NCBI RefSeq assembly: GCF_006539865.1
Contig: NZ_BJNV01000055.1
Span: 1-34,195 of the forward strand
Direction: 5' to 3'
DNA length: 34,195 nucleotides
DNA from: Zoogloea ramigera
GTDB taxonomy: Bacteria > Pseudomonadota > Gammaproteobacteria > Burkholderiales > Rhodocyclaceae
This document shows, piece after piece, positions 555 to 19,625 of the stretch. A program made the position numbers and the translations under genes. The first letter of the stretch is position 1. The number at the start of each line of letters is the position of its first letter. The notes beneath the pieces were generated by a model. The model had not been told where the DNA came from. It worked only from the letters and a program-made list of their open reading frames with translations, and ran no database searches.

Positions 555-3254
555 TTACCTCAGGCCGAGTTCAGCCGCACATTCCCGATAATCGGCATCG
601 GTCCCGGTCTTCCGTTTCTTCCTCCGCATCAAATCCCGCCAACCTGACAGATCGTCAAGAATATCGGCCATCATCTGCACGGGCGTCAGGTAGGCGTGAT
701 TGGTCCGCTCGACGAGTTCGGGAATCTTCAGCAGCTTCACGGTGGCTGGGTATCCCATCCTGACTGCCGTGTGAAGGGCGCTATTGCCCTCGGCGGTCGA
801 CACCCGGGTGAGGTCCGGGCCCCGAGCGAGAATGGCTGACACACAATCCGGCGATGCCCCTGTGACCGCCGAGTGGAGGGCCGTCCGGCCCAGGTAGTCC
901 TGGATGTTCAGATCAGCCCCGGCTTCGAGAAGGACCTTCACCATCGGCAGGTCACCTCGATCTGCTGCCAGCATCAGCGCCGTCTGCCCTTTGAAATCCT
1001 GCAAGTTCGCCTGCTCAGGCCAATTGTCGATCAGCAGATAGATAGCCTGGCGCCGCTTGACGACGTGCGCCTTCATCTTGGCTACGTCTCCTTGAAGCTC
1101 CGCAGGCACCTGAACAGCCAGCTCCGGCAATTTATCTTCAAACGTATGAAGCATCTTCAGCCAGATCATCAGGACGCTATCGCCGCGCACATCCCTGAGC
1201 CGCTTCTTACAGAAGTTGCCGGCGTTGCGCTTCAACCAGACGCGCAGCCCCTCCCAGTCGGCACACTCGATCAAGCCCATGGTTTCGCCGATGATCTTGC
1301 GGGCCTGCTCCGCAGCTATTGGCCTCCTTGAGGAGTAAGAAGGATAGGGCCGGTAGAGCGTATCCCAGAAGTATTCGGCGGCTCCTGCCGCGACGTTCTC
1401 GAGGGATGCCTCTGCGCCCTCGATCATTCCATTCGCGAGCATGTGGCGGTAGGGCTTCTCGTGGTTGCCCGGAACGAGCCGGCTATCCGCCACTTCGATG
1501 GCCAGTAGATCCCGCGCGATTTCGCCACGCGACGGGCCAAACTGTTGGTCTGCCCCCGCGTCGAGCGCCTCACGGAAGAGTTTTTTGGCAGCTTCGAAAT
1601 CATTGCGCGCGAGATGATGTTTGGCGCGGTACTGCAGCAGAACGGAGGCGTACGCCTCGCGGGCCGGGCTGGCCTCTGCCTCGGCAAGCAAGCTCTCGAC
1701 ATGCTGTTCGAGGTCTTTTGGCCGGTCGCGGCCCTCGGTGTCGAACGCCATGTGGAGGTCGATCAAGACAGCGCCTATTGCATGCCACGGCGTCGGTGCC
1801 AGTTCACGCATCCGCTTGGTGGCTACCGCACGGGCCTTGGGCGGCAGGCTTGCGGTTTGCGCCACCTGACTGACGACCCAGTAATCGTCTACAGACTGAA
1901 GAATGCGCCACGCCGACGAGCGGCGAATACGGTCCAGCACTTGTTCGACTTGCCGATCCTTCACCCGGTCGGAGGCGAGCTGTTGCAGTCGAGACGCGGC
2001 GATACGCGGCAGCTCCTTCTCGGTCACGGGCACCAGATCCGCCAGGGGCGCATCGGGCTCCAACTCTGCGAAACGCCGTGTCAGGAACCCACCCAGCTCT
2101 TGGTAGGCCGTGCCGAAACGGGACGGCAGGATCGAGAGGAACAGGGTGGCTGCGTCCAGAGGCGGGATCTGCGCTTCAAACCACTCGTTCTCTTCCTGCA
2201 CGTTTGTGCCGTGTTTGTGGGCTTCAATCGTCAGGTTGAAGACTGCCTTGAAGAGCTCCAACAGTTGCAAGACCTTGTTGCGGTAAGGATCGGGGCAGGT
2301 CGCCTCCACCCCGGGGCACAGGAACTTGACCAGCCGCTCATAGCCGTCCTGCATCATGCGTGCGACGCGCAGCCGCTGGCGGACAATGTGCATCGCCGGT
2401 CTGGCATAGCGCGTGGCAAGGCGATCTACGAAGAGCTGCTGCTCATCGTCTGTCGCGGTTCCGGCGAGAATCGCTTCAAGCCGGCCAGGCTGGGTCATCG
2501 GGATCTGCGCTCTCAGTTGCTCGGCATCCATGCCTTTCTGCGCCACAAAAGCCAGTGCAGCCCCAAAACGCTCGGCATCCGTTAGCCCGGCTGCCGGTTC
2601 GAACGTGCCATCGAAACGCAGTGACGCATCATCCGGAAAGTACTTTTCGATCGACTTGGCATCCAACAGTGTCTCGCCGGCCTTCCAGTGGTAGAGCGAG
2701 CGCTCCATCGAGTCTTGGGCATCGGCACGCTTGGCCCGCGCTCCGCCGACATCCTTCTTGAGTTCATCCATGGGCAGGCCGACGAGATCCATCAGCCACG
2801 CCAGCACGTGCTGCACCGGCAAACTGACCCGCGTCCGGCTCTCGTCCAGCATGGGCAGGAACCAGAACTCTCCACCGGGCATGCCGGCGTCGAACGCTTG
2901 CCCCAGATTCCAGTTGGCGACCAACCTCCCCAGCGCAGGCGCATAGCTGTACGCGCTCATGTGCCATACAACCTGTTGCGGGCTCGCCTGGCAGGTCCAG
3001 ATATTCTGAGCCAAGGCCTGATTGAAATTCACCCAGCTCAGAATGTTGAAGCTGACATCCCGTCGGGCTGCGGGATCCATCTCGAGGGCCTCGAAGATGG
3101 CATCGAGCTCGGCGGCCATCATTGCACGGTGAGTTGTGAGCAACAGACCGTAGGCGCGGAAATCCTCGTTCTTATCGGTGGAGTGACGGTTCTTGAGCCT
3201 AAGACTTTTCCGGATCTCCAGCAGGAGGGTTTCAAAATTCGGGATGGCTGCCAT
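555..3254 (-). CDS. Large TPR-like/ankyrin-repeat protein, divergent from viperin
   Basis: An 899-aa protein with no signal peptide or membrane segment, so probably cytoplasmic. The long helical N-terminus contains a segment at about 183-206 (SLYHWKAGETLLDAKSIEKY) that resembles the recognition half of an HTH domain. A TPR-like stretch follows at about 531-590. Ankyrin repeats lie at about 754-842, with typical GQTALMLAADRGD and GRTALHSAV signatures, and the tail is basic. The same order of parts is seen in the protein at 16970-19204, with locally matching segments (LPVQHVLAW here, PLEVVLDW there), so the two are probably distant homologues. It is transcribed away from the viperin gene across a 151-bp gap. 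The ATG at 3254 is the first one in frame, but I see no clear Shine-Dalgarno sequence before it. Ankyrin repeats normally bind proteins; no catalytic motif is evident. A sensor, regulator or effector role in defence is inference. Confidence 0.85.
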   Translation of the reverse strand: MAAIPNFETLLLEIRKSLRLKNRHSTDKNEDFRAYGLLLTTHRAMMAAELDAIFEALEMDPAARRDVSFNILSWVNFNQALAQNIWTCQASPQQVVWHMSAYSYAPALGRLVANWNLGQAFDAGMPGGEFWFLPMLDESRTRVSLPVQHVLAWLMDLVGLPMDELKKDVGGARAKRADAQDSMERSLYHWKAGETLLDAKSIEKYFPDDASLRFDGTFEPAAGLTDAERFGAALAFVAQKGMDAEQLRAQIPMTQPGRLEAILAGTATDDEQQLFVDRLATRYARPAMHIVRQRLRVARMMQDGYERLVKFLCPGVEATCPDPYRNKVLQLLELFKAVFNLTIEAHKHGTNVQEENEWFEAQIPPLDAATLFLSILPSRFGTAYQELGGFLTRRFAELEPDAPLADLVPVTEKELPRIAASRLQQLASDRVKDRQVEQVLDRIRRSSAWRILQSVDDYWVVSQVAQTASLPPKARAVATKRMRELAPTPWHAIGAVLIDLHMAFDTEGRDRPKDLEQHVESLLAEAEASPAREAYASVLLQYRAKHHLARNDFEAAKKLFREALDAGADQQFGPSRGEIARDLLAIEVADSRLVPGNHEKPYRHMLANGMIEGAEASLENVAAGAAEYFWDTLYRPYPSYSSRRPIAAEQARKIIGETMGLIECADWEGLRVWLKRNAGNFCKKRLRDVRGDSVLMIWLKMLHTFEDKLPELAVQVPAELQGDVAKMKAHVVKRRQAIYLLIDNWPEQANLQDFKGQTALMLAADRGDLPMVKVLLEAGADLNIQDYLGRTALHSAVTGASPDCVSAILARGPDLTRVSTAEGNSALHTAVRMGYPATVKLLKIPELVERTNHAYLTPVQMMADILDDLSGWRDLMRRKKRKTGTDADYRECAAELGLR

Positions 3255-3405
3255 GATGAAGTTCGGGTTGGTTGATGACGTTGAGAAGTATGTCGGAGCT
3301 GTCTCCCTCGGGCCAGTGAAACGTCACGTCCCCCCCCTGTCGTCTGGTTGAGGTAGCCGAAGAGGCCCGGCACAGTGGGGCTTCGCTCATCACCGGAGTC
3401 TCGTC
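3255..3405. promoter_or_regulatory. Divergent intergenic region between the ankyrin and viperin genes
   Basis: These 151 bp separate two outward-facing genes and must hold the promoter of at least the viperin gene. No strong sigma-70 hexamer pair stands out. A CGGAG at about 3393-3397 precedes the viperin GTG by a usable distance, which supports that start. The ankyrin side has only cttcatc directly before its ATG, so its translation may be weak or leaderless. A shared regulatory region is inferred from the gene layout alone. Confidence 0.4.
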
Positions 3406-4323
3406 GTGACCCGCCACTCAGCCCCCGATAACGAACTCGTCATCAACTGGCACATCACCGAAGCCTGCAACTACCGCTGCCGTTACTGCTACGCAAAGTG
3501 GGACAAGGCAAGCAACCGACGCGAACTGATCCACGACCAGTCCCGCAGCACGAAGCTGCTGGAAGAACTGGCTGCCTTCTTCCGGCCGGGCAACTCGCGC
3601 AATCCACTGAATCAGGCACTGGATTGGAAATCCCTGCGCCTTAACCTCGCCGGCGGCGAACCCCTGCTGTACCGCCGGGAGGTGCTGCGCATCGCCAACG
3701 AGGCGCGCCGGCTGGGTTTTGCCGTCTCGATCATCACCAACGCCAGCCGCCTGGATCACGATCTGATGGGCGAGCTGGCGGGCCTGCTATCGGTGCTTGG
3801 GATCAGCATCGATTCGGCTGATGCTCTGCGAAACCAGCAAATCGGTAGGGAAGATCGGCACCGCCATCGCCTGGAGCCGACCGCGCTCACCCGGGTGATT
3901 GCCCTTGGCCGGCAGCTGAATCCGGCGCTGCGCCTCAAGATCAACACCGTCGTCAATGCCCTGAACCACCGTGAGGACATGGCGCCACTGCTCCGCACAC
4001 TTGCCCCGGAAAAGTGGAAAGTCTTGCGGATGCTACCCAGCGTCACCGACGAACTTGCCGTCTCAACGATGCAATTCGATGCCTTCGTGAGTCGGCACCG
4101 CTCGGCTGACCTCCCCATGTATGTCGAAGACAACACCGACATGAGTGAGTCCTACATCATGATCGACCCGGATGGGCGCTTCTTTCAGAACTCTCCGACC
4201 CGTCGTGGTTACCACTACAGCCCGCCAATCCTGGATATCGGCGCAGCCGCAGCCTTCAGTCACATCCAGCTGTCTCCTGCCAGATATTTCCAACGCTACA
4301 CGTTGGCGGAGGCTTTCGAATGA
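3406..4323 (+). CDS. Prokaryotic viperin (antiviral radical SAM enzyme)
   Basis: A 305-aa radical SAM protein. Cysteines C21, C25 and C28 in the segment EACNYRCRYCYAKW bind the 4Fe-4S cluster, and AGGEP (82-86) is the SAM-binding motif. Viperin-specific features follow: S-x-D-S with IGR downstream (134-148), KINTVVNALNHREDM (178-192, compare human KINSVINRFNVEEDM), WKVLRMLP (204-211), FDAFVSRH (224-231), SYIMIDPDGRFF (249-260) and PILDIG (274-279). Known viperins use SAM to convert a nucleoside triphosphate into its 3'-deoxy-3',4'-didehydro form, which terminates viral RNA synthesis; the nucleotide used here cannot be read from the sequence. The start is GTG with CGGAG about 9 bases upstream. 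The human amphipathic N-terminal helix is absent, as in other bacterial members. The stop codon overlaps the next gene (ATGA). No nucleotide kinase gene is adjacent. Confidence 0.93.
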   Translation: MTRHSAPDNELVINWHITEACNYRCRYCYAKWDKASNRRELIHDQSRSTKLLEELAAFFRPGNSRNPLNQALDWKSLRLNLAGGEPLLYRREVLRIANEARRLGFAVSIITNASRLDHDLMGELAGLLSVLGISIDSADALRNQQIGREDRHRHRLEPTALTRVIALGRQLNPALRLKINTVVNALNHREDMAPLLRTLAPEKWKVLRMLPSVTDELAVSTMQFDAFVSRHRSADLPMYVEDNTDMSESYIMIDPDGRFFQNSPTRRGYHYSPPILDIGAAAAFSHIQLSPARYFQRYTLAEAFE

Positions 4324-4700
4324 AGTACTCCGCCGCCAAGGAGATCAACGCCCTCGTCCAGAAGCTCGTCAAGGACGGCTGGACCTACTGGCGTGGCGGT
4401 AGGCATGGGCGACTACAGGCGCCATCGGGCCATCCAACCCTCACGATTGGCTGTACGCCGAGCGATCGGCGCGCATTCCAGAATTTCAGACGTGACTTAC
4501 GAAATGCACTCTCGTTCCAGGAGACGGCCACAGGGACCCGGACGAAGCGACAACCCGTTCGTGGGGCGAGCGGATCGCCTCCTGCTCCTACGGCGCCAGC
4601 CTCTCCCGCTCCCAACGCCCATCCTCCTGCCGCCGGTAGGCGTAGCGATCATGCAGGCGCGAGGGGCGGCCCTGCCAGAATTCCCAGTAGTCCGGCGTGA
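4320..4700 (+). CDS. HicA-like small protein coupled to viperin, with an aberrant C-terminal extension
   Basis: A 126-aa frame overlapping the viperin stop by 4 bp (ATGA), so translation is probably coupled. Residues 8-65 resemble the HicA mRNA-interferase fold: a helix ending in KDGW, then RGGRHG with H29 where HicA carries its catalytic His, a short strand pair, CTPSD, and a final helix NFRRDLRN. It matches the 68-aa protein at 19201-19407 at about half of the aligned positions (27 of about 55, aligned by hand). That homologue stops just after the last helix. Here the frame continues for about 60 residues rich in P, A, S, R and G, and runs antisense into the last 113 bp of pdxH. The native stop was probably lost at the island junction around 4.5 kb. 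RNase activity is not shown, and no HicB gene is adjacent. Confidence 0.7.
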
Positions 4701-5235
4701 GCCGGTAGCCGCCCCAGTGGGGTGGGCGGGGGGGCTTCAGGCCGAACTTGAGGCCGTATTCGGCGGCGCGGGCCACGATCACCGCGCGGTTGGCGATGGC
4801 TTCGCTCTGGGGCGAGGCCCAGGCGCCGATGCGGTGGGACAGCGGGCGGCTGGCGAAGTAGGCGTCGGATTCCTCGTCGGAAACCTTGCTGACCCGGCCT
4901 TCGATGCGCACCACGCGCTCCAGCTCGACCCAGTGGAATTGCAGCGCGGCGAAGGGGTGGGCCGCAAGCTCGGCGCCCTTGCGGCTGGCGTAGTTGGTGA
5001 ACCAGACGATGCCCCGCTCGTTGTAGCCCTTGATGAGCACTGGCCGCGTGGACGGCCGGCCGTCGGCACCCACCGTGGCGACGGTCATCGCGTTGGGCTC
5101 GGGGAGGCCCTTGTCGAGGGCCTCGGCGAGCCAGGCGCCGAATTGGGCGAGGGGTTCGCCGGCCAGGTCGGCATCGTCGAGGCTGCCCTGCTCGTAGCTC
5201 TTGCGCAGGTCGGCGAGGGAGGTGTCCTTGCTCAT
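4588..5235 (-). CDS. pdxH: Pyridoxamine/pyridoxine 5'-phosphate oxidase
   Basis: A 215-aa cytoplasmic FMN enzyme that oxidises pyridoxine or pyridoxamine 5'-phosphate to pyridoxal 5'-phosphate with O2, the last step of vitamin B6 synthesis and salvage. Family hallmarks are PNAMTVATV near residue 47, [18 protein letters not shown] (FMN phosphate site), [16 protein letters not shown], the [10 protein letters not shown] block and the canonical C-terminal RLAP. Length is normal for the family. The start ATG at 5235 gives [17 protein letters not shown], the expected N-terminus. It lies downstream of rdgC with a stable hairpin between them. Its 3' end is overlapped antisense by the extended HicA-like frame, marking the edge of the accessory island. 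Confidence 0.97.
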
Positions 5236-5270
5236 CGGGGGGGCTCCGGGGAAGTGGATATTGGGTAGTT

Positions 5271-5306
5271 GGGAGTGGGAAATGGAGGGGTGGGTTTCCC
5301 ACTCCC
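5271..5306 (-). terminator. 12-bp stem-loop between rdgC and pdxH
   Basis: gggagtgggaaa (5271-5282) pairs perfectly with tttcccactccc (5295-5306) across a 12-nt loop. It begins just after the rdgC stop on the minus strand. There is no clear U-run after the stem, so it may be an imperfect terminator, an mRNA-stabilising 3' hairpin, or a leader structure for pdxH. Confidence 0.55.
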
Positions 5307-5310
5307 CAAA

Positions 5311-6219
5311 TCAGATCACGCCGTCCGGCTGTTCGCCGCCCAGCACTTCGATCAGAGCCGGGATCAGGCGCGAGAGTTCGCCGCTCATCAGCGCGAAGTC
5401 GGCTTCCATCTGCATGTCGGCGGCGTCGGCCTGCTTTTCGGCTTCTTCCTTGATCACGTCGAGGAAGGCGACGCGCTTGATCTCCATCTTCTCGGTGAGG
5501 ATGAAGCTCACGCGGTCGTCGAAGGTCATCGCCAGGCGGGTGGGCAGCTTGCCGGCGGCCAGGTGGTCCTGGATGTCCTGGCCGTCGAGGGCGTGGCGCA
5601 CGTAGCGCACGGCGGCCTTCTCGTCGGTGACGGCGCGCAGCTCGCAGTCGAGATCGATGGTGAAGTTGCCGGTGGCTTCGTTGGCGGCCAGCCAGGCGGT
5701 CATCACCGACACCGGCGACTGCTGGGTCTTGACCATCTTCACCGGCAGCTCGTCGAGGCTGTCGCGCAGGGCGTCGAGGATCTCCTCGGCGCGGGCCGGG
5801 CTGGCGGCGTCGATCACCAGCCAGCCGCCCACCGGGTCGATCCAGGTGAACACCTTGCGGCGGCGCGTGAAGGCGCGGGGCAGCAGCTCCTGCAGCACGG
5901 CCTCCTTGATCTCCTTCATCTGCTTGCGGCCGGGCTTGAAGCCCTGCTGGGCCTCGATGGCCTCGGCCTTGTCGGCGGCGACCTCATTGACCACCGACGA
6001 GGGCAGCAGCTTCTGTTCGACGGCCAGCGCCACCAGGTAGTGGCCGCCCACGGCCAGTACGAAGCGGTCGTCCTTGGTGGGCGAGCTCCAGCCGCGGCTC
6101 GCCATGTCCTGGCTGCCGCAGGGCTGGAAGGGATGGGCGGCGAGCTTTTCCTGCAGCGTGTCGGCGGTGAGGCCCCAGTTTACGGGGAGGCGGTAGATCT
6201 GCAGATTCTTGAACCACAT
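5311..6219 (-). CDS. rdgC: Recombination-associated protein RdgC
   Basis: A 302-aa protein matching RdgC over its whole length (E. coli RdgC is 303 aa). The N-terminus MWFKNLQIYRLP, CGSQDMASRGW, the LLPSSVVNE block, the RKVFTWIDP region and the C-terminal FILTEKMEIKRVAFLD are typical. RdgC forms a ring-shaped dimer around double-stranded DNA and limits RecA access and RecFOR-dependent recombination. It sits in a minus-strand run after bluB, with its own candidate promoter (TACAAT at 6256-6261) 36 bases upstream of the start. Confidence 0.97.
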   Translation of the reverse strand: MWFKNLQIYRLPVNWGLTADTLQEKLAAHPFQPCGSQDMASRGWSSPTKDDRFVLAVGGHYLVALAVEQKLLPSSVVNEVAADKAEAIEAQQGFKPGRKQMKEIKEAVLQELLPRAFTRRRKVFTWIDPVGGWLVIDAASPARAEEILDALRDSLDELPVKMVKTQQSPVSVMTAWLAANEATGNFTIDLDCELRAVTDEKAAVRYVRHALDGQDIQDHLAAGKLPTRLAMTFDDRVSFILTEKMEIKRVAFLDVIKEEAEKQADAADMQMEADFALMSGELSRLIPALIEVLGGEQPDGVI

Positions 6220-6255
6220 GGCTTGAAGCTTTCGTGCTGAGGGAAAAGAGGCGGC

Positions 6256-6261
6256 ATTGTA
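6256..6261 (-). promoter_or_regulatory. Candidate -10 box (TACAAT) for rdgC
   Basis: On the minus strand TACAAT lies 36 bases before the rdgC ATG. The matching -35 region is GC-rich and poor (tggcgg at 17-bp spacing), so this is a tentative sigma-70 promoter resting mainly on the -10 hexamer. Confidence 0.4.
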
Positions 6262-6268
6262 GCGATTG

Positions 6269-6289
6269 CCGGGCCGGCCGCCAGCCCGG
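6269..6289 (-). terminator. Hairpin downstream of bluB
   Basis: ccgggc (6269-6274) pairs with gcccgg (6284-6289) across a 9-nt loop, 14 bases beyond the bluB stop on the minus strand. There is no U-tract, so it is a weak terminator candidate. Confidence 0.35.
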
Positions 6290-6303
6290 AAAAGCGGGGG
6301 CCT

Positions 6304-6954
6304 TCAGGCGCCCGTCGGCCAGCTGTTTTCGGCCATCACGCTGTCGATGGGCATGCGCTCGGCCCATTGTTCCATCTCGAGCATGGGCCGCGGGTAGAAG
6401 GCCTCGACGTGGCCGATGCACAGGATCGCCACCGGGCGGGCGCCGGCCGGCATGCCCAGCAGGCGGGCGAGCTCGACGGGGTCGAAGATCGACACCCAGC
6501 CCAGCCCGATGCCTTCGGCGCGGGCCGCCAGCCACATGTTCTGGATCGCGCAGGCCACCGAGGCGAGGTCCATCTCGGGCAGCGTGCGGCGGCCGAAGAT
6601 GTGCTTCTCGCGCTCGTCGGCCAGCGCCACCACGACCACCTCGCCGGCGTCGAGCAGGCCTTCCACCTTCAGCCGCATGAAGTCGTCCTGGCGCTCGCCC
6701 AGCGCCTGGGCGGTGGCCTGGCGTTCGGTTTCTACCAGCGCGTGCATCTGCTCGCGCAGGGCCCGGCTCGTGACGCGGATGAAGCGCCACGGCTGCATGA
6801 AGCCGACGCTGGGCGCGTGGTGGGCGGCCCACAGCAGGCGCTGCAGCAGGGCCGGGGCGACGGGGTCGGGGCGGAAGTGGCGCATGTCGCGCCGCTCGGC
6901 GATGGCCCGGTAGACGGCGGCGATCTCCGGGTCGGAAAAGCGGTGGTCGGCCAT
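6304..6954 (-). CDS. bluB: 5,6-dimethylbenzimidazole synthase
   Basis: A 216-aa nitroreductase-fold protein. BluB breaks down reduced FMN with O2 to make 5,6-dimethylbenzimidazole, the lower ligand of vitamin B12. Supporting features are the N-terminal AIAERRDMRHFRPDPV (residues 18-32) with the Arg/Asp pair of BluB, HHAPSVGFMQPWRFI (45-59), the EMDLASVACAIQNMWLAA block and GLGWVSIFDP (150-159), followed by PVAILCIGHVE. It is not accompanied by other cob genes here, but the truncated frame at the right edge of the window could be a CobC-type phosphatase. It is 32 bp downstream of dbpA on the same strand. Confidence 0.93.
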   Translation of the reverse strand: MADHRFSDPEIAAVYRAIAERRDMRHFRPDPVAPALLQRLLWAAHHAPSVGFMQPWRFIRVTSRALREQMHALVETERQATAQALGERQDDFMRLKVEGLLDAGEVVVVALADEREKHIFGRRTLPEMDLASVACAIQNMWLAARAEGIGLGWVSIFDPVELARLLGMPAGARPVAILCIGHVEAFYPRPMLEMEQWAERMPIDSVMAENSWPTGA

Positions 6955-11486: not shown

Positions 11487-11502
11487 GAGGGGCGGCCGGG
11501 CC

Positions 11503-12741: not shown

Positions 12742-13232
12742 GCCGGTTCGGCCAGCAGCTGGGCGATGCGGGCGTGGAGCTTGTCGAAGTCGGGCTCGCC
12801 GAGGAACTTCTGGACCACCTGGCCGCGCTTGTCGATGAGGAAGGTGGTGGGCGTCAGGCGCACGTCGTCGAAGCCCTTGGCGGCCTCGCCGCTGGCATCC
12901 ACCGCCACCTTGAAGGGCAGCGCGTTGTTGCGGGCGTAGTTGCGCACGTAGTCGGGCGGGTCGTAGCTCATGGCGATGGCGAGGGTCTCGAAGCCCTGGG
13001 CGGCGAACTTGTTGTGGGTGTCCACCAGCTTGGGCATCTCGGCCACGCAGGTGGTGCAGGTGGTGGCCCAGAAGTTAACCAGCACCACCTTGCCGCGCAG
13101 CGCCGAGAGGCGGCTGCTCTGGCCGTCGAGGGTGGTGAAGCTCACGTCCGGGGTGGCCGGCTGGCTGCAGCCGCCGACCAGTGCAACGAGGAGGAGCGGG
13201 GCCAGGAAGCGCGTGATAGCCTTGAGGAACAT
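12738..13232 (-). CDS. TlpA-like thioredoxin-fold lipoprotein
   Basis: 164 aa. The N-terminus is a lipoprotein signal with a lipobox ending LVGGC (lipidated C22). The thioredoxin-like domain has an active site of the form W-A-T-T-C-T-T-C (C59 and C62) and the cis-Pro block LTPTTFLID. TlpA/ResA proteins act in the periplasm as thiol-disulfide reductases, often in cytochrome c or copper-centre maturation. The CTTC centre differs from the usual CPPC or CEPC. It is first in the exporter operon, with a 4-bp overlap to the adaptor, which hints at a redox job linked to the exported substrate. It is divergent from the DUF4197 gene with only 29 bp between starts. Confidence 0.9.
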   Translation of the reverse strand: MFLKAITRFLAPLLLVALVGGCSQPATPDVSFTTLDGQSSRLSALRGKVVLVNFWATTCTTCVAEMPKLVDTHNKFAAQGFETLAIAMSYDPPDYVRNYARNNALPFKVAVDASGEAAKGFDDVRLTPTTFLIDKRGQVVQKFLGEPDFDKLHARIAQLLAEPA

Positions 13233-13261
13233 CGTTTTCTTACCGGAAAGAGAGGTTTGCC

Positions 13262-13942
13262 GTGCGTGCGATTCTGAGAGCTTTGCTGCTGCTTGTCATC
13301 TCCTGTCAGGCCTGGGCCGTGGGCCTCGCCGATCTCACCGACAAGGACGCCTCCGGCGGCCTGCGCGAGGCGCTGGTGCAGGGCGCTTCGAAAGCCGTCG
13401 GACAACTCGGCACCGACGGAGGTTTCCTCAACAACCCGAAAGTGAAGATCGGCCTGCCCGCCACCCTGGCGCCGGTGGAGGGCATGCTGCGCACCATGGG
13501 CCGCGGCAAGGACCTCGACGCCCTCGTCGACACCATGAACAAGGCCGCCGAGCAGGCCGTACCCAAGGCCAAGGTGCTGCTGGTGGATGCGGTGAAGAAG
13601 ATGAGCGTGGACGACGCCAAGAAGATCCTCGCCGGTGGCGACGACGCGGCCACCCAGTACTTCAAGGACAAGACCTCGGCTCAGCTCGCCGAATCCTTCC
13701 TGCCCACCGTCAAGGCCACCACCGACAAGCTGGCCCTGGCCGACAAGTACAACAAGATCGCCAGCAAGGCCGGCAGCTTCGGGCTGGGCGGCGACGAGCT
13801 GAAGATCGAGAACTACGTGACCCGCAAGGCCCTCGACGGCCTGTTCCTGATGATCGCCGAGGAAGAGCGGGCGATCCGCAAGGACCCGCTAGGCACTGCC
13901 ACCGGCCTCGCCAAGAAGGCCTTCGGCGCGCTTGGGCAGTAA
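13262..13942 (+). CDS. DUF4197 family secreted protein
   Basis: 226 aa with a signal peptide (about 1-19, cleaved near AWA-VGL). The mature protein matches the DUF4197 pattern: LREALVQGASKAVGQLG, FLNNPKVKIGLP, MNKAAEQAVPKAK, a central ILAGGDDAATQYFK and a C-terminal VTRKALDGLFLMIAEEERAIR. The family is periplasmic or envelope-associated with no known function. The start is GTG at 13262, preceded by GGAAAGAGAGG. It lies back to back with the TlpA-like gene and directly before pxpB; a functional link with pxpBC is uncertain. Confidence 0.9.
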   Translation: MRAILRALLLLVISCQAWAVGLADLTDKDASGGLREALVQGASKAVGQLGTDGGFLNNPKVKIGLPATLAPVEGMLRTMGRGKDLDALVDTMNKAAEQAVPKAKVLLVDAVKKMSVDDAKKILAGGDDAATQYFKDKTSAQLAESFLPTVKATTDKLALADKYNKIASKAGSFGLGGDELKIENYVTRKALDGLFLMIAEEERAIRKDPLGTATGLAKKAFGALGQ

Positions 13943-13945
13943 GCC

Positions 13946-14662
13946 TTGAGCCCGCCCGCCGCAGGCTTCCCCCGCCTGCTGGCGCTGGGCGATGCCGCCT
14001 TCACCGTCGAGTTCGGCGGCGGCATCGCCCCCGAAATCCACGCCCGGGTGCTCGGCTTTGCCGCAGCGCTGGCCGATTGCGCCATCCCCGGCGTGATCGA
14101 GCGGGTGCCCACCTTCCGCTCGGTCACCGTGCATTTCGACCCCGACCTCATCGACCCGCCGCGCCTCGCCGCCGACCTGCTGGCGCTGGCCCAGGCGGGC
14201 CACGAGGCCGCCGCCAGCGGCCGGCGCTGGGTGCTGCCGGTGTGCTTCGACGACGCGCTGGCGCCGGATCTACCCGACGTCGCCGCCCACTGCGGCCTCG
14301 CCCGCGAGGCGGTGATCGAACGCCTCACCGCCACCGAATTCAGCGTTTACATGCTCGGCTTCCTGCCCGGCTTTGCCTACCTGGGCGGCCTGCCGGCGGC
14401 CCTCGAGATGCCGCGCCTCGCCACCCCGCGCACCCGCGTGCCGGCCGGCTCGCTGGCCATCGCCGGGCGCATGGCGGCCATCTACCCCTGGGACAGCCCG
14501 GGCGGCTGGCGGCTCGTCGGGCGCACCGGGGTAGGGCTGTTCGATGCCGGCAACGCCACCCGCCCGGCCCTGCTGGCGGCGGGCGACCGGGTGCGCTTCA
14601 GGGCCGTGGCCAGCCTCGCCGAGGCGGCCGAGATCACCGAGACCGTGCCGGAGCTGCCATGA
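13946..14662 (+). CDS. pxpB: 5-oxoprolinase subunit B
   Basis: About 238 aa of the KipI/PxpB family. Features are the N-terminal ALGDAAFTVEFG, the core EFSVYMLGFLPGFAYLGGLP and TPRTRVPAGSLAIAG, and the closing YPWDSPGGWRLVGRT. With PxpA and PxpC it hydrolyses 5-oxoproline to glutamate using ATP, repairing a spontaneous glutamine breakdown product. The best start in frame is TTG at 13946, three bases after the preceding stop, so a 5' end a little further in is possible. Its stop overlaps pxpC by 4 bp (ATGA). Confidence 0.9.
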   Translation: MSPPAAGFPRLLALGDAAFTVEFGGGIAPEIHARVLGFAAALADCAIPGVIERVPTFRSVTVHFDPDLIDPPRLAADLLALAQAGHEAAASGRRWVLPVCFDDALAPDLPDVAAHCGLAREAVIERLTATEFSVYMLGFLPGFAYLGGLPAALEMPRLATPRTRVPAGSLAIAGRMAAIYPWDSPGGWRLVGRTGVGLFDAGNATRPALLAAGDRVRFRAVASLAEAAEITETVPELP

Positions 14663-15693
14663 GCGCCGCCCTCGAGATCGTCTCCGCCGGCCTCGGCGTG
14701 TCGGTGCAGGACGCCGGCCGGCCCGGCCACCGCAGCATCGGCGTACCGCTCTCCGGGGCCCTCGACCCGCTGCTGCTGGCCGCCGCCAACCACCTGGCCG
14801 GCAGCCTGGCGGGTGCGGCGGGGCTGGAGGTGCTGCTCGCCGGCCCCACGCTGCGTGCCACGGGCGGGCCGGTGTGCGTGGCGCTGGCGGGGGAACTCGC
14901 CGGGCGCATCGTTGGCGTGGGGGGTGACGTGCGGAGGCTCGCGGCCTGGTCGGCGGCGGTGCTGCAGCCGGGCGACAGCCTGCAGCTGGGCCGCCCGCAG
15001 GGCGTGGCCTACCTGGCGGTGGCCGGCGGCTTCCTCACCCCGCCCATGCTCGGCAGCCGCGCCACCTACGCCCGCGCCGGGCTGGGTGGCGTCGACGGGC
15101 GGGCCCTGGCGGCGGGCGTCCGACTGCCCTGCGCGCCCTTCGCCGGAGATCCGCAGCACGCCTTGCAGGCCGCGCCCCTGCTGCACCCGGGTGGCGCCAT
15201 CCGGGTGATCCCCGGCCCCCAGGCCGACCACTTCACCCCCGCCGCCCTCGCCAGTTTTTACAGCGAGCCGTGGACGCTCACCCCCGCCCGCGACCGCATG
15301 GGCCTGCGCCTCGCCGGCCCGCGCCTGGTGCATGTGCCGGGCGGCGCCGATATCGTCTCGGACGGCGTCACCCCCGGCGCGATCCAGGTGCCCGCCGACG
15401 GCCAGCCCATCGTGCTGCTGGCCGACTGCCAGACCGTCGGCGGCTACCCCAAGATCGCCACCGTGATCCGCGCCGACCTCCCGCGCCTGGCCCACCTGCC
15501 GCCCGGCGCCGAGATCCGCTTTGTGGCCGTCGACGCCACCCATGCCGCAGAGGCTCGCGCCGCCCAGGCCCGCCTGCTCGCCGGCTGGCGAACCACCCTG
15601 CGCCCGGCCGTCCGGCATGGCGACATCCCCACCGAAACCCTCCTCGCCGCCAACCTCGCCGGCGCCGCGCTGCGCGGAGACGAGGAGGGCTGA
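14659..15693 (+). CDS. pxpC: 5-oxoprolinase subunit C
   Basis: 344 aa of the KipA/PxpC (biotin-dependent carboxylase-like) family. It starts with LEIVSAGLGVSVQDAGRPGH and carries GVPLSGALDP, VAGGFLTPPMLGSRATY, the block RDRMGLRLAGP and the signature DGVTPGAIQVPADGQPIVLLAD (given here in part: GAIQVPADGQP). The start ATG at 14659 overlaps the pxpB stop; the open frame extends far upstream only because of base composition. The third subunit, pxpA (LamB/YcsF), is not next to it on either side and must be elsewhere if the enzyme is functional. Confidence 0.93.
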   Translation: MSAALEIVSAGLGVSVQDAGRPGHRSIGVPLSGALDPLLLAAANHLAGSLAGAAGLEVLLAGPTLRATGGPVCVALAGELAGRIVGVGGDVRRLAAWSAAVLQPGDSLQLGRPQGVAYLAVAGGFLTPPMLGSRATYARAGLGGVDGRALAAGVRLPCAPFAGDPQHALQAAPLLHPGGAIRVIPGPQADHFTPAALASFYSEPWTLTPARDRMGLRLAGPRLVHVPGGADIVSDGVTPGAIQVPADGQPIVLLADCQTVGGYPKIATVIRADLPRLAHLPPGAEIRFVAVDATHAAEARAAQARLLAGWRTTLRPAVRHGDIPTETLLAANLAGAALRGDEEG

Positions 15694-15706
15694 GGGGCGG
15701 GGGCCC

Positions 15707-15725
15707 CGTCGCGGATGCCGCGACG
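15707..15725 (+). terminator. Hairpin downstream of pxpC
   Basis: cgtcgcgg (15707-15714) pairs with ccgcgacg (15718-15725) around an atg loop, 14 bases after the pxpC stop. There is no U-run, so it could be a Rho-assisted terminator or a 3'-protecting hairpin. Confidence 0.4.
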
Positions 15726-15755
15726 AGCACGGTGCGCGATGCGGGGGTGTTATAG

Positions 15756-15833
15756 GGGCGACTTCAGTCGCCCTCAGCCGGCAAGACCAGGTCAGATCCT
15801 TGATTTGACCTCCGCGGGCGACTCAAGTCGCCC
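15756..15833. repeat. Pair of identical-arm hairpins (gggcgact...agtcgccc)
   Basis: The inverted repeat gggcgact/agtcgccc occurs twice in the same orientation, at 15756-15773 (loop tc) and 15816-15833 (loop ca). Between them is a smaller inverted repeat, aggtca (15789-15794) with tgacct (15806-15811). The whole 15694-16015 gap (322 bp) between pxpC and the next gene is otherwise non-coding. The arrangement resembles a REP-type (repetitive extragenic palindrome) element: two palindromes flanking a short linker. Confidence 0.75.
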
Positions 15834-16015
15834 CCACATGTCCCCCCCATAAGTCACCGCTACAGCCCCAGCTTCTTGCGCGCGAGCCACCCCATCGAGC
15901 TTTCGCCAAGCTGAGACGGATAAATGCATATACCATGGCAGGCGCGCGCCGGAATCGCCACGTCATTGCGGCTGGCTCGGCGCGACATTCCAGAAACCGT
16001 CACACGGAGCCCGCC

Positions 16016-16480
16016 ATGAAACAGAACCTGGTATCCCTCGTCTTCACCCCGGCCGAGATCGAGGATCTCAAGGCCGCCATCACCCGCATCGAGAAGTTCA
16101 CCGAGTCCTTCGTCACCCTCACCCCCGACGAGCTGCGCCGCCTCGCCAAGCTGGGTGACGGCACCGAGCCCTTCTGCCGCCAGGCCACGGTCGTCTTCGA
16201 GCAATACCCCCACGCCTTCCCCCCCAGCTTCGACCTCGCCGAGATGCAGCGTGACCTGGCCACCTTCGACGCCCTGCGCGGCCCGCTGCTGCGCCTGCAG
16301 CAGCTCGTCTCGCGCTTCGACGACACCGTCACCGCCCTCGGCAGCGACGCGCTGGTGGCCGCCCTGGAGGGCTACCGCCACATGCAGAGCGACGGCAAGA
16401 GCGAGGGCCTCGCCGCGCTGAAGGACGCCTACCCGGCCCGCCGCCCGCGGATCGTCAAGAAGGACGCCGGCACTGCTTGA
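16016..16480 (+). CDS. Conserved hypothetical protein
   Basis: 154 aa from the ATG at 16016, with GGAG nine bases before it; an upstream in-frame ATG at 15935 has no such site. It is soluble, mostly helical and without a signal peptide. Features seen are SLVFTPAEIEDLKAAI, LTPDELRRLAKLGDGTEPFC, PPSFDLAEMQRDLATFDALR and a central ALGSDALVAALEGY. I recall proteins of this kind in several bacterial phyla, but no function is known to me. It stands alone, convergent with the ankyrin locus and separated from it by the palindrome array. Confidence 0.8.
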   Translation: MKQNLVSLVFTPAEIEDLKAAITRIEKFTESFVTLTPDELRRLAKLGDGTEPFCRQATVVFEQYPHAFPPSFDLAEMQRDLATFDALRGPLLRLQQLVSRFDDTVTALGSDALVAALEGYRHMQSDGKSEGLAALKDAYPARRPRIVKKDAGTA

Positions 16481-16621
16481 GCACCCCACCCACCCGGCCG
16501 GCGCCCGCCGGTCGGCCCACCGGGGCCGTGTCACGACAGCCCGCGCCCCGGCCCGCGCTGCCTCCCACCACCCCGCCGCAGCCCTGCCGGCTGCCCCCCT
16601 TGCCCTGCGCCCCGCCAGAAA

Positions 16622-16912
16622 AGGGTGTCGGCGACCCTCGGGAGGGTCGTGGATACCCTCCCGAGGGTGTCCACGCCCCAACGGAGCCCCGCCGCGACCC
16701 TCCGGAGGGTCGCCGAGACCCAAGGAAGGGGCGCGAACACCCTCCGGAGGGTATCCCCATACCCTTCGATGCCCCAGCGCGGGGCATCCGAGGGTCGGCG
16801 CGGGGCAAGGGAGGGTATCGAGATACCCTTTTGCGCCCCGTTTTGGGGCATCAAAGGGGCGCTGCGACCCTCGGGAGGGTGGCGGGATACCCTTTCATAC
16901 CCCAAAGCGGGG
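16622..16912. repeat. Dense array of short palindromes (ACCCTCnnGAGGGT and GCCCC...GGGGC types)
   Basis: About 300 bp between two convergent genes hold repeated ACCCT/AGGGT arms. Clear palindromes are 16632-16649 (cgaccctc-gg-gagggtcg), 16655-16668, 16694-16713 (a perfect 20-bp palindrome), 16739-16752, 16761-16795 (outer accct/agggt enclosing gatgcccc-agcgc-ggggcatc), 16812-16829 (agggtatc-ga-gataccct) and 16867-16880. A second arm type, gcccc/ggggc, recurs at 16835-16849 and, as cccc/gggg, at 16900-16912. Spacing is irregular (roughly 30-70 bp). It is not CRISPR-like. Possible identities are a REP/BIME-type cluster, a bidirectional termination zone, or a target array for a binding protein. 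The rest of the gap 16481-16969 shows nothing else. Confidence 0.85.
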
Positions 16913-16969
16913 CATTGGAGGGGGCGTAGAAGTCAGGCAGACAGGAGGCCGCTTGGGCGGGGCTTCTGC

Positions 16970-19204
16970 TTACATCACGCCGATCTGTTGGAAGTGCTGG
17001 ATGACATTCCCCGACCTGAACCCGTTTGCGTGCACCCGGCAATCATGCCCCGCCGCGTCCCGGGCAAAGGGATCTCCCCCATGCTGCATCAGCAGTTCGA
17101 CGGCCTCCGGGGTGTCGTTCTCGACCGCCAGCATCAGCGGCGTCCGCCCGGCGGCAGGGTAGGCATGGCTGGCGTTCGGGTTGGCTCCATGGGCCAGCAG
17201 GCTGCGGGCGATCTGGAGCTGTTTTTCAACGGTGTGGCGGCGGAGAAAGTCGTCGACGACCCGATCGGTAACGACCTTGAAGATCTCATGCCCGGCCGGA
17301 TTGCGCATCGCATCGAACATCGATTGCTTGTCACCGAACACGCCCGCCACGCCCACGCCATATCGACGTAAGGTCTCACGCACCACCCCGTCACGATCGC
17401 CGCTGAGACTCTTGAGCACCATCGTCCGGATTGACTGGGCAGCCCGCTGGCCGCCCATGTTCCGGATGCATAGATAAAGCGGGGTCTGGTCATCGACATG
17501 GCCACGCAGATTGGGGTCAGCGCCCATTTCAAGGAGCTTCGCGACGACGTCGGGCTCACCGTAGTCGATCGCGCTGATCAAGGGCGTCAGCCGCTTCCTG
17601 GCAGTCCGCTGATTCAGGGTTTTGATGTTGTGCGGATGGGCGAGCAGCAGGTCGAGCACCTCGCGCTCGTTGCGGTCGGCGGCCCTCTGGATGGCGCCGA
17701 GCAAGGCCGAGCCATCCGAGTCGTCCAGAAGATCGACCGAGGCGCCTTTTTCGAGAAGTCTCCTTACGACGTCAACGGACCCGAACGACGCATGGCGCGA
17801 CAGCTGGCTCCAGCGCCGGATCTGATTGTCGACGGTGCGAACGCCGACGCGCTGATCCGGCTTGCGGTAGTTCGGCGCCCGCTTGGCCAGGGATTCGGTG
17901 TCGTACATCAGGAAAGGCAGGGCACCCATTTTGTTTTTGGGCTGCTCCACCTCGACGAAGCGCCCTTGCGGGGGGAACAGATGGTGAAACTGTTTGCGAA
18001 GCTCTTCGAGCTCCCAATCTTCAACGGCTTTTTTCTCATCCATGGGCGTGGCCATCAGCTCCAGGGCGATGGCCCGATGCTTCAGCTGCTTTAGAAAAGG
18101 CTTGGCGTTGCCCAGGTAGCCGGCGAGTGCCATGGCCTCGCCAACGATCTCTTTCCACGTCGCGCCGGCCCGGTAATCCGAAAGGGCCACGGCCTGTCGG
18201 TAATGCTCAAGCGCCCTGTCGCATTGGCCGGAAAGAACATACCAGCGTCCCCGATACCATTCGAGCGCGTAACGGCTTCGGCCTTCCGGGTCGTGGGTGG
18301 CCAGTTGCCCCGCGAAGTCGGCCAGATCCGCCTCCGCTCGGGCGCGGTCGCCGTCGGCCTTGGGCTTCGTACGGCTCAGGCCGACGAAGAGTTTTCCAAA
18401 GGGCTCCTTGAGCATCTCCAGCTTCTTCCCCGCCTCGATGGCAGCCAGCGACAGGATCTTGCCGATGTCCCACTGCTGGTGCCCGTTACGGATATGCCGG
18501 TTCATGATCTGCCGGAGGTGCAAGGGGTTGGCTTCGCGTTCGAACCAGGTCAGGGCGCGGGCGAGGAGTAGCCACTTGCGAAGCCCGGGCACCTTCTTCC
18601 GCTGTGCATCGGTTCCATTCTTCGCCAAGGCGTCGAGGAAGAGCTTGAGGCTGCCGAGATCCGGCAACTGGGTGCCATTCGCCCAGCGCGTCACCTTTTC
18701 CCGGTTGTCGAGATCCGCTGTGTCCGGGAAGGCGGCCTTGCCGAGGGTGTGGCTGCCGTCGGCCCAGTCGAGGACGACTTCGAGCGGATATTTCTCCGGG
18801 TTGAGGAATGCGGCCGGATCGGGGGCGTCGTCGGTCCAGACCGCTTTGAGGATACCGATTGCCTGGAAGGCGAAGAAATGCTCGATCAGGATGGGCAAGG
18901 CCTCGTCCCGGCTCATGCCGTCCAGGGAAATCGTTGAGACGATCCTCAGGTAGCTGGCGTGAACATGCTTTATGAACTGATCCAGGTGGTGAATGAACTC
19001 GTCGTCTGCACCGTATTTGCGCAGGGGGGTGAGGATGAGAGCCTCCCGCAGGTCGGAGAGCAGGGACCAGTCGGAGTCTCCCTCCCTCGCCAGGCGCTCG
19101 ACATCGCGGTTGTTGGACTTGGTGTCGAGCGCTTGTGCCAGGGCGCTGTAGAGCTCACCCAGGCGGGGGTAGGGGGGTGTTGCAGTGGTCGGTTGGATAG
19201 TCAT
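16970..19204 (-). CDS. Large TPR-like/ankyrin-repeat protein coupled to a HicA-like gene
   Basis: A 744-aa soluble protein. The N-terminal helical region includes PLEVVLDW (140-147) and an HTH-like segment REKVTRWANGTQLPDLGSLK (168-187). A TPR-like stretch follows at about 308-345 (YRGRWYVLSGQCDRALEHYR). Ankyrin repeats span about 465-715, for example VDVVRRLLEKGASVDLLDD, LTPLISAIDYGEPDVVAKLL and GRTPLMLAVENDTPEAVELL. The order of parts parallels the 899-aa protein at 555-3254, suggesting common descent with a longer ankyrin region here. Its ATG overlaps the stop of the HicA-like gene by 4 bp (ATGA), so the two are co-translated. No enzymatic motif was found. Roles as an antitoxin, sensor or effector partner are inference. 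Confidence 0.87.
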   Translation of the reverse strand: MTIQPTTATPPYPRLGELYSALAQALDTKSNNRDVERLAREGDSDWSLLSDLREALILTPLRKYGADDEFIHHLDQFIKHVHASYLRIVSTISLDGMSRDEALPILIEHFFAFQAIGILKAVWTDDAPDPAAFLNPEKYPLEVVLDWADGSHTLGKAAFPDTADLDNREKVTRWANGTQLPDLGSLKLFLDALAKNGTDAQRKKVPGLRKWLLLARALTWFEREANPLHLRQIMNRHIRNGHQQWDIGKILSLAAIEAGKKLEMLKEPFGKLFVGLSRTKPKADGDRARAEADLADFAGQLATHDPEGRSRYALEWYRGRWYVLSGQCDRALEHYRQAVALSDYRAGATWKEIVGEAMALAGYLGNAKPFLKQLKHRAIALELMATPMDEKKAVEDWELEELRKQFHHLFPPQGRFVEVEQPKNKMGALPFLMYDTESLAKRAPNYRKPDQRVGVRTVDNQIRRWSQLSRHASFGSVDVVRRLLEKGASVDLLDDSDGSALLGAIQRAADRNEREVLDLLLAHPHNIKTLNQRTARKRLTPLISAIDYGEPDVVAKLLEMGADPNLRGHVDDQTPLYLCIRNMGGQRAAQSIRTMVLKSLSGDRDGVVRETLRRYGVGVAGVFGDKQSMFDAMRNPAGHEIFKVVTDRVVDDFLRRHTVEKQLQIARSLLAHGANPNASHAYPAAGRTPLMLAVENDTPEAVELLMQHGGDPFARDAAGHDCRVHANGFRSGNVIQHFQQIGVM

Positions 19205-19407
19205 GAGGGGTGCTCCAGTTTGCGGATGTCCCGCTGAAAGTTTCGTAGCGCTCGGTGATCACTGGGGGTGCAGGGCACCGGAATGCGTCGCCCCGAGGGC
19301 GATGTAAGCTTTCCATGCCTGCCGCCGCGACAGAACTGCCAACCCTGCTTTACCAGTGATCGTATGAAGATGGCAAAGTCCTTGTCTTTGCAGAATCTTA
19401 ACGTCAT
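19201..19407 (-). CDS. HicA-like small protein coupled to the ankyrin gene
   Basis: 68 aa from the ATG at 19407. The open frame extends to 19632, but that upstream part is out of frame with the real small gene at 19458-19625 and has no domain character. Features are FIRSLVKQGWQF (14-25), RGGRHG (28-33) with H31 at the HicA catalytic-His position, CTPSD (46-50) and a final helix LRNFQRDIRK. The size fits HicA toxins (about 60-80 aa), but the surrounding gene is not a HicB antitoxin. It shares about half of its aligned residues with the protein encoded at 4320. Whether it cuts mRNA or only binds RNA through the dsRBD-like fold is unknown. Confidence 0.75.
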   Translation of the reverse strand: MTLRFCKDKDFAIFIRSLVKQGWQFCRGGRHGKLTSPSGRRIPVPCTPSDHRALRNFQRDIRKLEHPS

Positions 19408-19457
19408 TTTGTTTGCGCGTGGCCTGGACAGTCCTTGCCCTGCCCAGGCCGCTCCGA

Positions 19458-19625
19458 TTACGGTTTCTTGGGGGTGGTGTTGTGCGCCGCGGTGCGCTGG
19501 GCGCGTGCCGCGAAACTCTGGGGGCTGACCTGGCCGCCAGCGCTGCGGGCTTCGGCCGACTGGATGCGGCTGGCTGCGCCTTGTGTCATCGGGGTGCGGG
19601 GGGTGGATGCGGACTTTTTGGACAT
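19458..19625 (-). CDS. Small SMP-like protein (55 aa), first gene of the second locus
   Basis: Start ATG at 19625 with GGAG nine bases upstream; TAA at 19458-19460. The product begins MSKKSASTPRTPMTQGAASR and continues IQSAEARSAGGQVSPQSF, then AARAQRTAAHNTTPKKP. The pattern MT-x-x-AASRIQSA...GG-x-V...SFAARAQ-x-AA is one I recall from short bacterial proteins related to plant seed-maturation (SMP) domains, which are disordered and of unknown role. It lies 50 bp upstream of the HicA-like gene on the same strand, so the three genes probably form one operon. The viperin locus has no counterpart. Confidence 0.7.
   Translation of the reverse strand: MSKKSASTPRTPMTQGAASRIQSAEARSAGGQVSPQSFAARAQRTAAHNTTPKKP

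What the first reader, a model, noticed from the sequence alone, without database searches (positions are those of the whole stretch)
555..19625. Two paralogous HicA-like + TPR/ankyrin modules 12 kb apart
The loci at 0.55-4.7 kb and 16.97-19.6 kb each contain a HicA-like protein with RGGRHG and CTPSD motifs (27 of about 55 aligned residues identical by hand) and a large protein with the same order of parts: N-terminal helices, HTH-like W-x-x-G segment, TPR-like region, ankyrin repeats. In one the HicA-like gene follows viperin; in the other it is coupled to the ankyrin gene. Repeated pairing of the same two families is strong evidence for a functional module with an exchangeable third part, possibly an undescribed defence system.
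Basis: partly seen in the sequence, partly recalled or inferred. Interest (0 to 1): 0.92.

Follow-up and report, generated by a model that had tools for sequence, protein, structure and literature searches.

The report
HicA-like RNase modules with exchangeable partners
Two separate gene clusters in this bacterium each carry the same kind of tiny RNA-cutting-toxin-like protein next to a large repeat protein; one is a known antiviral (viperin) cluster, while the other looks like an undescribed three-gene operon found in many proteobacteria, probably a toxin-based or phage-defence module.

Summary
Both loci are real. Module 1 (555-4700): an ankyrin/TPR protein, divergent from a prokaryotic viperin followed by a HicA-like gene; all three match PADLOC models, and viperin-hicA linkage is published (Gerdes 2024). 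Module 2 (16970-19625): a 55-aa SMP-type protein, a HicA-like gene and a 744-aa ankyrin/TPR protein. The two HicA-like proteins are homologous (28/62 identical) and are distant HicA relatives; the His at HicA's active-site position is present in 85 of 85 sequences. The two large proteins are not shown to be paralogues. A motif scan of 84,980 genomes gave 64 HicA-like loci: 26 viperin-linked, 24 with the module-2 partner, 9 with other large partners, 5 other; none had viperin and the module-2 partner within 6 kb. All 24 module-2-type loci carry exactly one tiny gene upstream, SMP (15) or an unrelated NxPS-T-G-SG-GR-N peptide (9). So HicA is constant in this sample, and viperin, large partner and tiny peptide are exchangeable. 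Best reading: a HicA-type RNase toxin held by a large sensor/inhibitor. Activity and defence are inferred, not shown. Module 2 was not found in the held literature.

The parts
555..3254 (-). Large partner 'ANK1' (899 aa): N-terminal helical domain with W-x-x-G segment, TPR-like helices, C-terminal ankyrin repeats; divergent from viperin
   Evidence: PADLOC PDLC02908 'Ankyrin', residues 1-885, E=5.3e-250; Pfam Ank; AlphaFold2 model of residues 1-728, pLDDT 83.4
3406..4323 (+). Prokaryotic viperin (305 aa, GTG start)
   Evidence: NCBIfam NF038283, 340.5 bits, cut-off 180; PADLOC pVip 1e-95
4320..4700 (+). HicA-like gene 1; homologous core about 4320-4517; overlaps the viperin stop by 4 bases; the last ~40 codons lie beyond ~4577, where DNA shared with relative G005 begins, and overlap pdxH on the other strand
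   Evidence: PADLOC HicA-like PDLC02910, E=2.4e-28, residues 1-62; boundary from G005:C13; pdxH
19458..19625 (-). Small protein of 55 aa, SMP family (seed maturation protein motif), first gene of module 2
   Evidence: Pfam PF04927, 26.3 bits, cut-off 22; SMP gene upstream of HicA in 15 of 24 module-2-type scan loci
19201..19407 (-). HicA-like gene 2 (68 aa from ATG at 19407); stop overlaps the start of the ankyrin gene (ATGA)
   Evidence: PADLOC HicA-like, E=1.5e-26; Pfam HicA 19.9 bits, below the cut-off of 27; sequence
16970..19204 (-). Large partner 'ANK2' (744 aa): N-terminal helical domain with W-x-x-G segment, TPR-like helices, C-terminal ankyrin repeats
   Evidence: Pfam Ank; AlphaFold2 model of residues 1-465, pLDDT 87.6; same family next to HicA-like genes in 24 of 64 scan loci
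4577..4588 (.). Right edge of module 1: from about here on the DNA is shared with G005 (94%)
   Evidence: blastn of the window against genus regions
19626..19808 (.). Right edge of module 2 lies in or near this stretch: from 19808 on the DNA is shared with G005 and G007 (92-93%)
   Evidence: blastn of the window against genus regions

Best explanation
Both loci are versions of one modular arrangement built on a small HicA-family protein. In module 2 the operon SMP - HicA-like - ANK2 would work as a toxin module without HicB. The HicA-like protein, with its conserved His, is the RNA-cutting toxin. The large HTH-like/TPR/ankyrin protein, whose gene overlaps it, binds and restrains the toxin and senses the trigger (most likely a phage product). 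The tiny peptide tunes or bridges that complex. On infection the toxin is released, cuts mRNA and stops growth before phage are made. In module 1 the same type of toxin is paired with a different large partner (ANK1) and with viperin, which makes chain-terminating nucleotides as a second effector (activity of viperins from the literature). Shown here: the gene families, their order, their conservation, the HicA homology and the conserved His. Inferred: RNase activity, neutralisation by the large partner, sensing, defence.
For: HicA homology: profile of 84 HicA-like sequences against 25 HicA sequences, probability 96%, E=3.3e-9, with GSH of HicA aligned on the conserved His; reversed controls E 0.06 and 0.07. 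His in 85 of 85 sequences scoring over 50 bits (four of them second fetches of one locus), and not part of the pattern used for the genome scan. Pairing: of 64 scan loci, 26 viperin, 24 ANK2, 9 other large partners without viperin, 5 other; none with viperin and ANK2 within 6 kb. The HicA and ANK2 genes mostly overlap or abut. HicA and ANK2 distances correlate, r=0.82, 0 of 999 permutations as high, 26 loci. All 24 ANK2 loci have exactly one of SMP (15) or the tiny peptide (9). Of 199 genomes searched (own included) 5 have a viperin over cut-off, and all 5 have HicA-like directly downstream. No HicB family appeared in the Pfam scans of the two large partners of the window or of members of five further partner families.
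Against: No experiment. The HicA-like proteins score below Pfam's HicA cut-off (12.5 and 19.9 against 27 bits). Few defence genes show beside ANK2-type loci: for 95 neighbour proteins the 25 Pfam families shown (of 94) include 2 cytosine methylases, 1 McrBC and 1 N6 methylase among many housekeeping families, and the 25 PADLOC families shown (of 196) are methyltransferase-type models on 2 members each plus mad3 on 3; no background was measured. Large partner and small peptide occur without HicA in some loci: SMP with a frame-split ANK2 in G283 and with a short ANK2 in a Salinimonas plasmid, and the tiny peptide with C4 in G009 and with ANK1 in G075, so the large protein may do something else. 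Best PDB fold matches are weak TPR-type solenoids (best E 0.043 and 0.069).
Confidence: 0.45

Rival explanations
1. The tiny peptide (SMP or the GGGRGN-type peptide) is the direct antitoxin of HicA-like, and the large ANK/TPR protein is only the sensor or a scaffold.
For: A tiny peptide gene is present in 24 of 24 ANK2-type loci and in 8 of 9 other large-partner loci without viperin, against 3 of 26 viperin loci; two unrelated peptides take the same place, as antitoxins can (inference).
Against: 23 of 26 viperin-linked HicA-like genes have no such peptide upstream. The GGGRGN-type peptide also occurs without a HicA-like gene in the fetched flanks (about 1.5 kb a side) in 9 of 13 positive genomes; a tenth match was weak. 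SMP distances do not follow ANK2 (r=0.20, 119 of 999 permutations as high), although they follow HicA somewhat (r=0.48, 3 of 999; 16 loci).
Confidence: 0.15
2. The core pair is tiny peptide plus large HTH/TPR protein, an intracellular peptide-responsive switch in the manner of RRNPP regulators, and HicA-like and viperin are exchangeable outputs controlled by it.
For: Peptide plus large partner remain together where HicA is missing (G283, G009, G075, Salinimonas plasmid). The weak PDB matches include peptide-sensing TPR regulators (ComR and Rap for ANK1, NprR and PlcR for ANK2). A W-x-x-G-x-x-x-P segment resembles XRE helix-turn-helix signatures (likeness recalled); two C4 partners match Pfam HTH_3, one over its cut-off.
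Against: Fold matches are not significant (none with E<=1e-3). No export signal is apparent in the peptides by eye. In 2 of these 4 loci ANK2 is split or short, which also fits decay.
Confidence: 0.15
3. Plain addiction (toxin-antitoxin) modules that persist on mobile elements and have no defence role.
For: Patchy presence, lower GC than most of the surroundings (about 0.60-0.64 against 0.66-0.78), copies on plasmids; few defence genes in the lists for ANK2-type loci.
Against: The same HicA-like family sits with viperin, an antiviral enzyme, in 26 of 64 loci and in all 5 searched genomes with a viperin over cut-off; the very large conserved partner exceeds what addiction needs (inference).
Confidence: 0.2
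4. The HicA-like protein is not a toxin but an RNA-binding subunit of a ribonucleoprotein with the large repeat protein.
For: Below the Pfam HicA cut-off; the conserved C-terminal half (TPSD..R..NF.RD.R) differs from HicA.
Against: Conserved His at the HicA active-site position.
Confidence: 0.1

Closest known systems
Viperin-linked hicA, Class 10 of Gerdes 2024 (PMC10865869; abstract and passages seen) and PADLOC-DB models pVip / HicA-like / Ankyrin
   Same: Module 1 fits part for part: viperin followed by a HicA gene, with a near full-length match of the large protein to PADLOC 'Ankyrin'.
   Different: The paper's main text has no word beginning with 'ank' or 'TPR', so the ankyrin partner is not discussed there under those names. 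Module 2 has no viperin.
HicAB type II toxin-antitoxin
   Same: Small HicA-related protein with a conserved His, first gene of an overlapping pair.
   Different: No HicB found; the partner is a helical/ankyrin protein of mostly 743-783 aa; an extra tiny gene; the HicA-like C-terminal half differs.
RRNPP peptide-sensing TPR regulators (recalled; ComR, NprR, PlcR and Rap appear among weak fold matches)
   Same: HTH-like plus TPR protein next to a tiny peptide gene.
   Different: No significant fold match; no export signal apparent in the peptide; ankyrin repeats added.

Membership tests
HicA superfamily | Profile similarity to HicA | tested here: met
   hhalign 96%, E=3.3e-9, over 40 columns; reversed controls fail. 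Below the Pfam gathering score
HicA superfamily | Conserved active-site His | tested here: met
   85 of 85 sequences over 50 bits
HicA superfamily | RNase activity / toxicity | not testable with these tools
   bench assay needed
HicAB toxin-antitoxin system | Adjacent HicB antitoxin | tested here: not met
   No HicB family in Pfam scans of the large partners; recurrent neighbours are SMP, tiny peptide, viperin, WG lipoprotein and large partners. Not every small neighbour was scanned
Gerdes Class 10 / pVip system (module 1) | hicA directly downstream of a viperin gene | tested here: met
   3406-4323 and 4320-4700, 4-base overlap; NF038283 and PDLC02910
Gerdes Class 10 / pVip system (module 2) | viperin gene next to hicA | tested here: not met
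   No viperin at module 2; none of the 24 ANK2-type scan loci has one within 6 kb
PADLOC 'Ankyrin' family | Full-length match to PDLC02908 | tested here: met
   ANK1, residues 1-885, E=5.3e-250
PADLOC 'Ankyrin' family (ANK2) | Match to PDLC02908 outside the ankyrin repeats | tested here: not met
   21.8 bits, best stretch profile 745-833, the repeat end
RRNPP regulators | Significant fold similarity to RRNPP TPR receptors | tested here: inconclusive
   Listed but with E of 0.096 to 1
Anti-phage defence system | Protection against phage | not testable with these tools
   needs phage challenge

The most novel reading that the evidence does not exclude
Viperin clusters and HicA-ANK operons are members of one modular immune class: a large HTH-like/TPR(/ankyrin) receptor, in many loci paired with a tiny peptide (SMP-type or GGGRGN-type), that switches on exchangeable effectors, a HicA-like RNase alone or together with viperin. 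Module 2 (SMP - HicA - ANK2) would then be an undescribed defence system, and the tiny peptides an unrecognised class of immune ligands or antitoxins.
Probability: 0.25. Interest if true: 0.8.

Novelty: new variant of a known kind. Interest (0 to 1): 0.6.

Why it matters
If right, it gives a partner, and so a way to test regulation, for the HicA genes beside bacterial viperins, whose control Gerdes names as an open question (passage). It adds a three-gene operon found in beta-, gamma- and alphaproteobacteria and, with the other tiny peptide, in a Desulfuromonas MAG. No HicA gene is listed at the match in the A. soli and Sulfitobacter plasmid tables (those tables are incomplete). The exchange of two unrelated tiny peptides at one operon position makes the antitoxin, ligand or bridge question directly testable.

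Tried and rejected
Paralogy of the two large proteins: BLASTP, whole-family hhalign, and hhalign of parts with 60 block-permuted decoys each and a reversed control. Decoys scoring as high or higher, without and with helix strings: N-part 55 and 59 of 60; TPR part 4 and 10 of 60; all non-ankyrin columns 4 and 3 of 60. Such decoys keep TPR pieces, so they are harsh. The first five helices have similar lengths (11/8/18/22/27 and 11/9/18/24/24), noted only as a hint. Similarity among the other large partners (C3, C6, C4, ANK1b, D343): none found in the pairs compared.

Secreted ankyrin effector: NCBIfam Dot/Icm Ank models score far below their cut-offs, in the repeat region. HicA in the PDB by profile: HicA3 (4p78) at E=0.48, no better than an unrelated lectin at 0.4. 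Pfam HicA in the own genome hits only another contig. SMP by Pfam model in 199 genomes: 1 hit, and the window's own copy was missed, so absence there means little; SMP in plasmids by tblastn: none, although L090 carries one, so that search is insensitive too. The tiny peptide as HicA-specific: rejected. The VIP label of L106 was wrong (the hit came from an extended viperin frame); counts here use 26 viperin loci. A tiny-peptide hit at window 2530-2691 lies antisense inside the ANK1 gene and was dropped. Two truncated HicA pieces (L138, L154) are counted among 'other'. Three of the 26 viperin loci show only part of viperin (L129, L133; L108 at a contig edge).

Papers: searches. Of Gerdes I saw abstract, outline and passages; of PMC13064858 passages; of the rest only listings. 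Bernheim 2021 is not held; what it says of hicA is taken from Gerdes.
Full report
What is there. The window is contig C55 of a 4.6 Mb genome. Module 1 has a large ankyrin protein (555-3254, minus), divergent from a viperin (3406-4323, plus) whose stop overlaps the start of a HicA-like gene (4320-4700). Module 2, all on the minus strand, has a 55-aa SMP-type gene (19458-19625), a HicA-like gene (19201-19407) and a 744-aa ankyrin protein (16970-19204). The modules have about 60-64% GC against 66-78% between them, where the genes include pdxH, rdgC, a DEAD-box helicase and a MacB/HlyD pair. Relative G005 matches the window from 4577 and G005 and G007 match it from 19808, each with no match on the module side of that contig; the left edges were not examined. 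Against this, G007 has a contig end identical to window 1-1276, so it shares at least the end of ANK1. Separate insertion of the two modules is my inference. The module-1 HicA frame runs over the junction at 4577, so its last ~40 residues are probably not part of the original protein. The genus is probably Zoogloea: same-genus genome G003 has a contig of the same length and HicA match coordinates as Zoogloea sp. 1C4.

Identity of the small protein. The two copies share 28 of 62 residues. Both match PADLOC 'HicA-like' strongly and Pfam HicA only below its cut-off. A profile of 84 HicA-like sequences (four are second fetches of one locus) against 25 HicA sequences from relatives gives 96% and E=3.3e-9, with HicA's GSH histidine on the conserved His; reversed alignments give nothing. 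The His is present in 85 of 85 sequences over 50 bits. It is thus a distant HicA, probably catalytic; activity is not shown.

Identity of the large proteins. ANK1 is the PADLOC 'Ankyrin' family. ANK2 matches that model only in the repeats. AlphaFold2 models of both parts before the repeats are confident and almost wholly helical, but no PDB fold matches at E<=1e-3. The profile alignment is colinear and pairs the W-x-x-G segments, but its score does not exceed decoys. They may be very distant relatives; that is not established.

Census. A scan of 84,980 genomes with one HicA-like peptide pattern, blind to neighbours, gave 85 pattern matches and 64 HicA-like loci. Class counts after correction of L106: viperin 26, ANK2 24, other large partner without viperin 9 (ANK1 4, ANK1b 3, C4 2), other 5. 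No locus has viperin and ANK2 within 6 kb. In 23 of 26 viperin loci one of six large-partner families lies within 6 kb: ANK1 8, C3 7, C6 4, D343 2, ANK1b 1, C4 1. These families were defined from the same loci, and several C3 and C6 loci are close relatives. In 6 of the 7 ANK1 or ANK1b loci without viperin, a WG-repeat lipoprotein of about 92 aa lies before HicA. In the HicA-like tree the labels are clustered (ANK2 10 changes against 22.8 in shuffles; L106 still carried its wrong label) and not monophyletic, with few columns and weak deep forks; the window's two copies are far apart.

Tiny peptides. All 24 ANK2 loci carry exactly one of SMP (15) or a peptide with N-[WGA]-P-[ST] and R-x-N motifs (9); so do 8 of 9 other large-partner loci without viperin (peptide type), 3 of 26 viperin loci and 0 of 5 others (the peptide profile was iterated on these regions, which favours finding it). 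The peptide is not specific to HicA: it matched 13 of 138 genomes (own among the 125 without a match). Four sites in 3 of the 13 genomes have a HicA-like gene in the fetched flanks (G012, G051 twice, G083); 9 genomes do not, among them G009, which has C4 beside the peptide, and G075, which has ANK1; one further match (G163) was weak.

Tests not seeded by HicA. Viperin over cut-off: 5 of 199 genomes, own included, all 5 with HicA-like directly downstream. ANK1 over 150 bits: 9 of 199 genomes, own included, 6 with HicA-like beside it, 2 without, 1 cut by a contig end. ANK2 N-part: 2 of 368 other class genomes, one with HicA-like (G387), one (G283) with SMP, a frame-split ANK2 and no HicA-like; ANK1 N-part: 0 of 368. 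Plasmids: one ANK2 N-part match, Salinimonas, with SMP, a 457-aa ANK2 and no HicA-like. ANK1 matches four Acinetobacter plasmids; of the three looked at, all show a partial match next to an IS transposase. Pairs found through HicA on plasmids: A. soli, with HicA next to an ankyrin gene, and Sulfitobacter unnamed4, with an IS5 element before the ankyrin gene.

How it may work. The best-supported reading is a HicA-type RNase kept silent by the large partner and released on a trigger, with viperin as an optional second effector. The steps from HicA homology to RNase, from linkage to neutralisation, and from viperin association to phage defence are inferences. Neighbour scans do not settle defence. 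Only the 25 most frequent families of each scan were shown. For 95 neighbours of the 24 ANK2 loci they include few defence genes. For 115 neighbours of 25 of the 27 loci then labelled viperin (L106 among them) they include AbiEi and AbiEii (2 members each), a GajA, an AbiD and an Old match and 7 phage integrases. No background was computed.

Known and new. Module 1 is known. The SMP - HicA - ANK2 operon, the exchange of SMP for the other peptide, and the exchange of large partners were not found in the held library; most subscription papers, including the 2021 viperin paper, are not held.

Noticed in passing
L277-L280, L282-L284 (relatives G019, G011, G145, G052, G025, G029, G018): The tiny NWPSTTG/SGGGRGN-type peptide also occurs away from any HicA-like gene in the fetched flanks; in L280 and L284 it stands near homologous ~370-aa proteins (65% identical) of unknown family.
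   Followed up: partly
L070/L096, L073, L095, L097-L100, L104-L106, L114: A WG-repeat lipoprotein (~92 aa; name and lipobox by eye) lies before HicA or viperin in these loci.
   Followed up: partly
L123, L127, L130-L133, L137 (C3); L072, L124, L126, L140, L149, L157 (C6); L086, L122, L125 (D343): Large proteins recur beside viperin-HicA pairs in Marinobacter and other marine gammaproteobacteria, Pseudomonas and Roseobacteraceae; the members scanned (L130; L126 and L072; L086) match no family over a cut-off.
   Followed up: partly
window 1-1276: Contig C249 of relative G007 is 100% identical here, while other DNA shared with G005 and G007 is 92-97% identical; recent shared acquisition or cross-contamination.
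   Followed up: no
L076 / L138 (Zoogloea sp. 1C4, 1701-1787): A 29-residue piece of HicA-like 1 at 93% identity: probably a remnant of a module-1 copy.
   Followed up: no
L129 and L132 (Marinobacter changyiensis, one contig, about 12 kb apart); Sulfitobacter SK025 plasmids L086 and L090: Other genomes also hold two HicA-like loci; the Sulfitobacter strain has one viperin type and one ankyrin type, on two plasmids.
   Followed up: no
loci L013-L020, L022-L028 and L031: A second group of weak HicA-like matches (about 22-28 bits), many in frames of 171-197 aa, in relatives; perhaps a different family, not examined.
   Followed up: no
L091 6203-6355; L092 (Arthrobacter phage AWGoat gene 53); L158-L166: HicA-like matches without a recognised large partner in the map: a gonococcal record with a 50-aa Gln/Asn-rich frame after it, and phage or viral contigs.
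   Followed up: no
window 19936-21201: 421-aa frame on the minus strand with no Pfam match at E<=0.1 and no NCBIfam match; DNA of this region matches 22 of 23 genus genomes (own included), many only in part or at several places.
   Followed up: no
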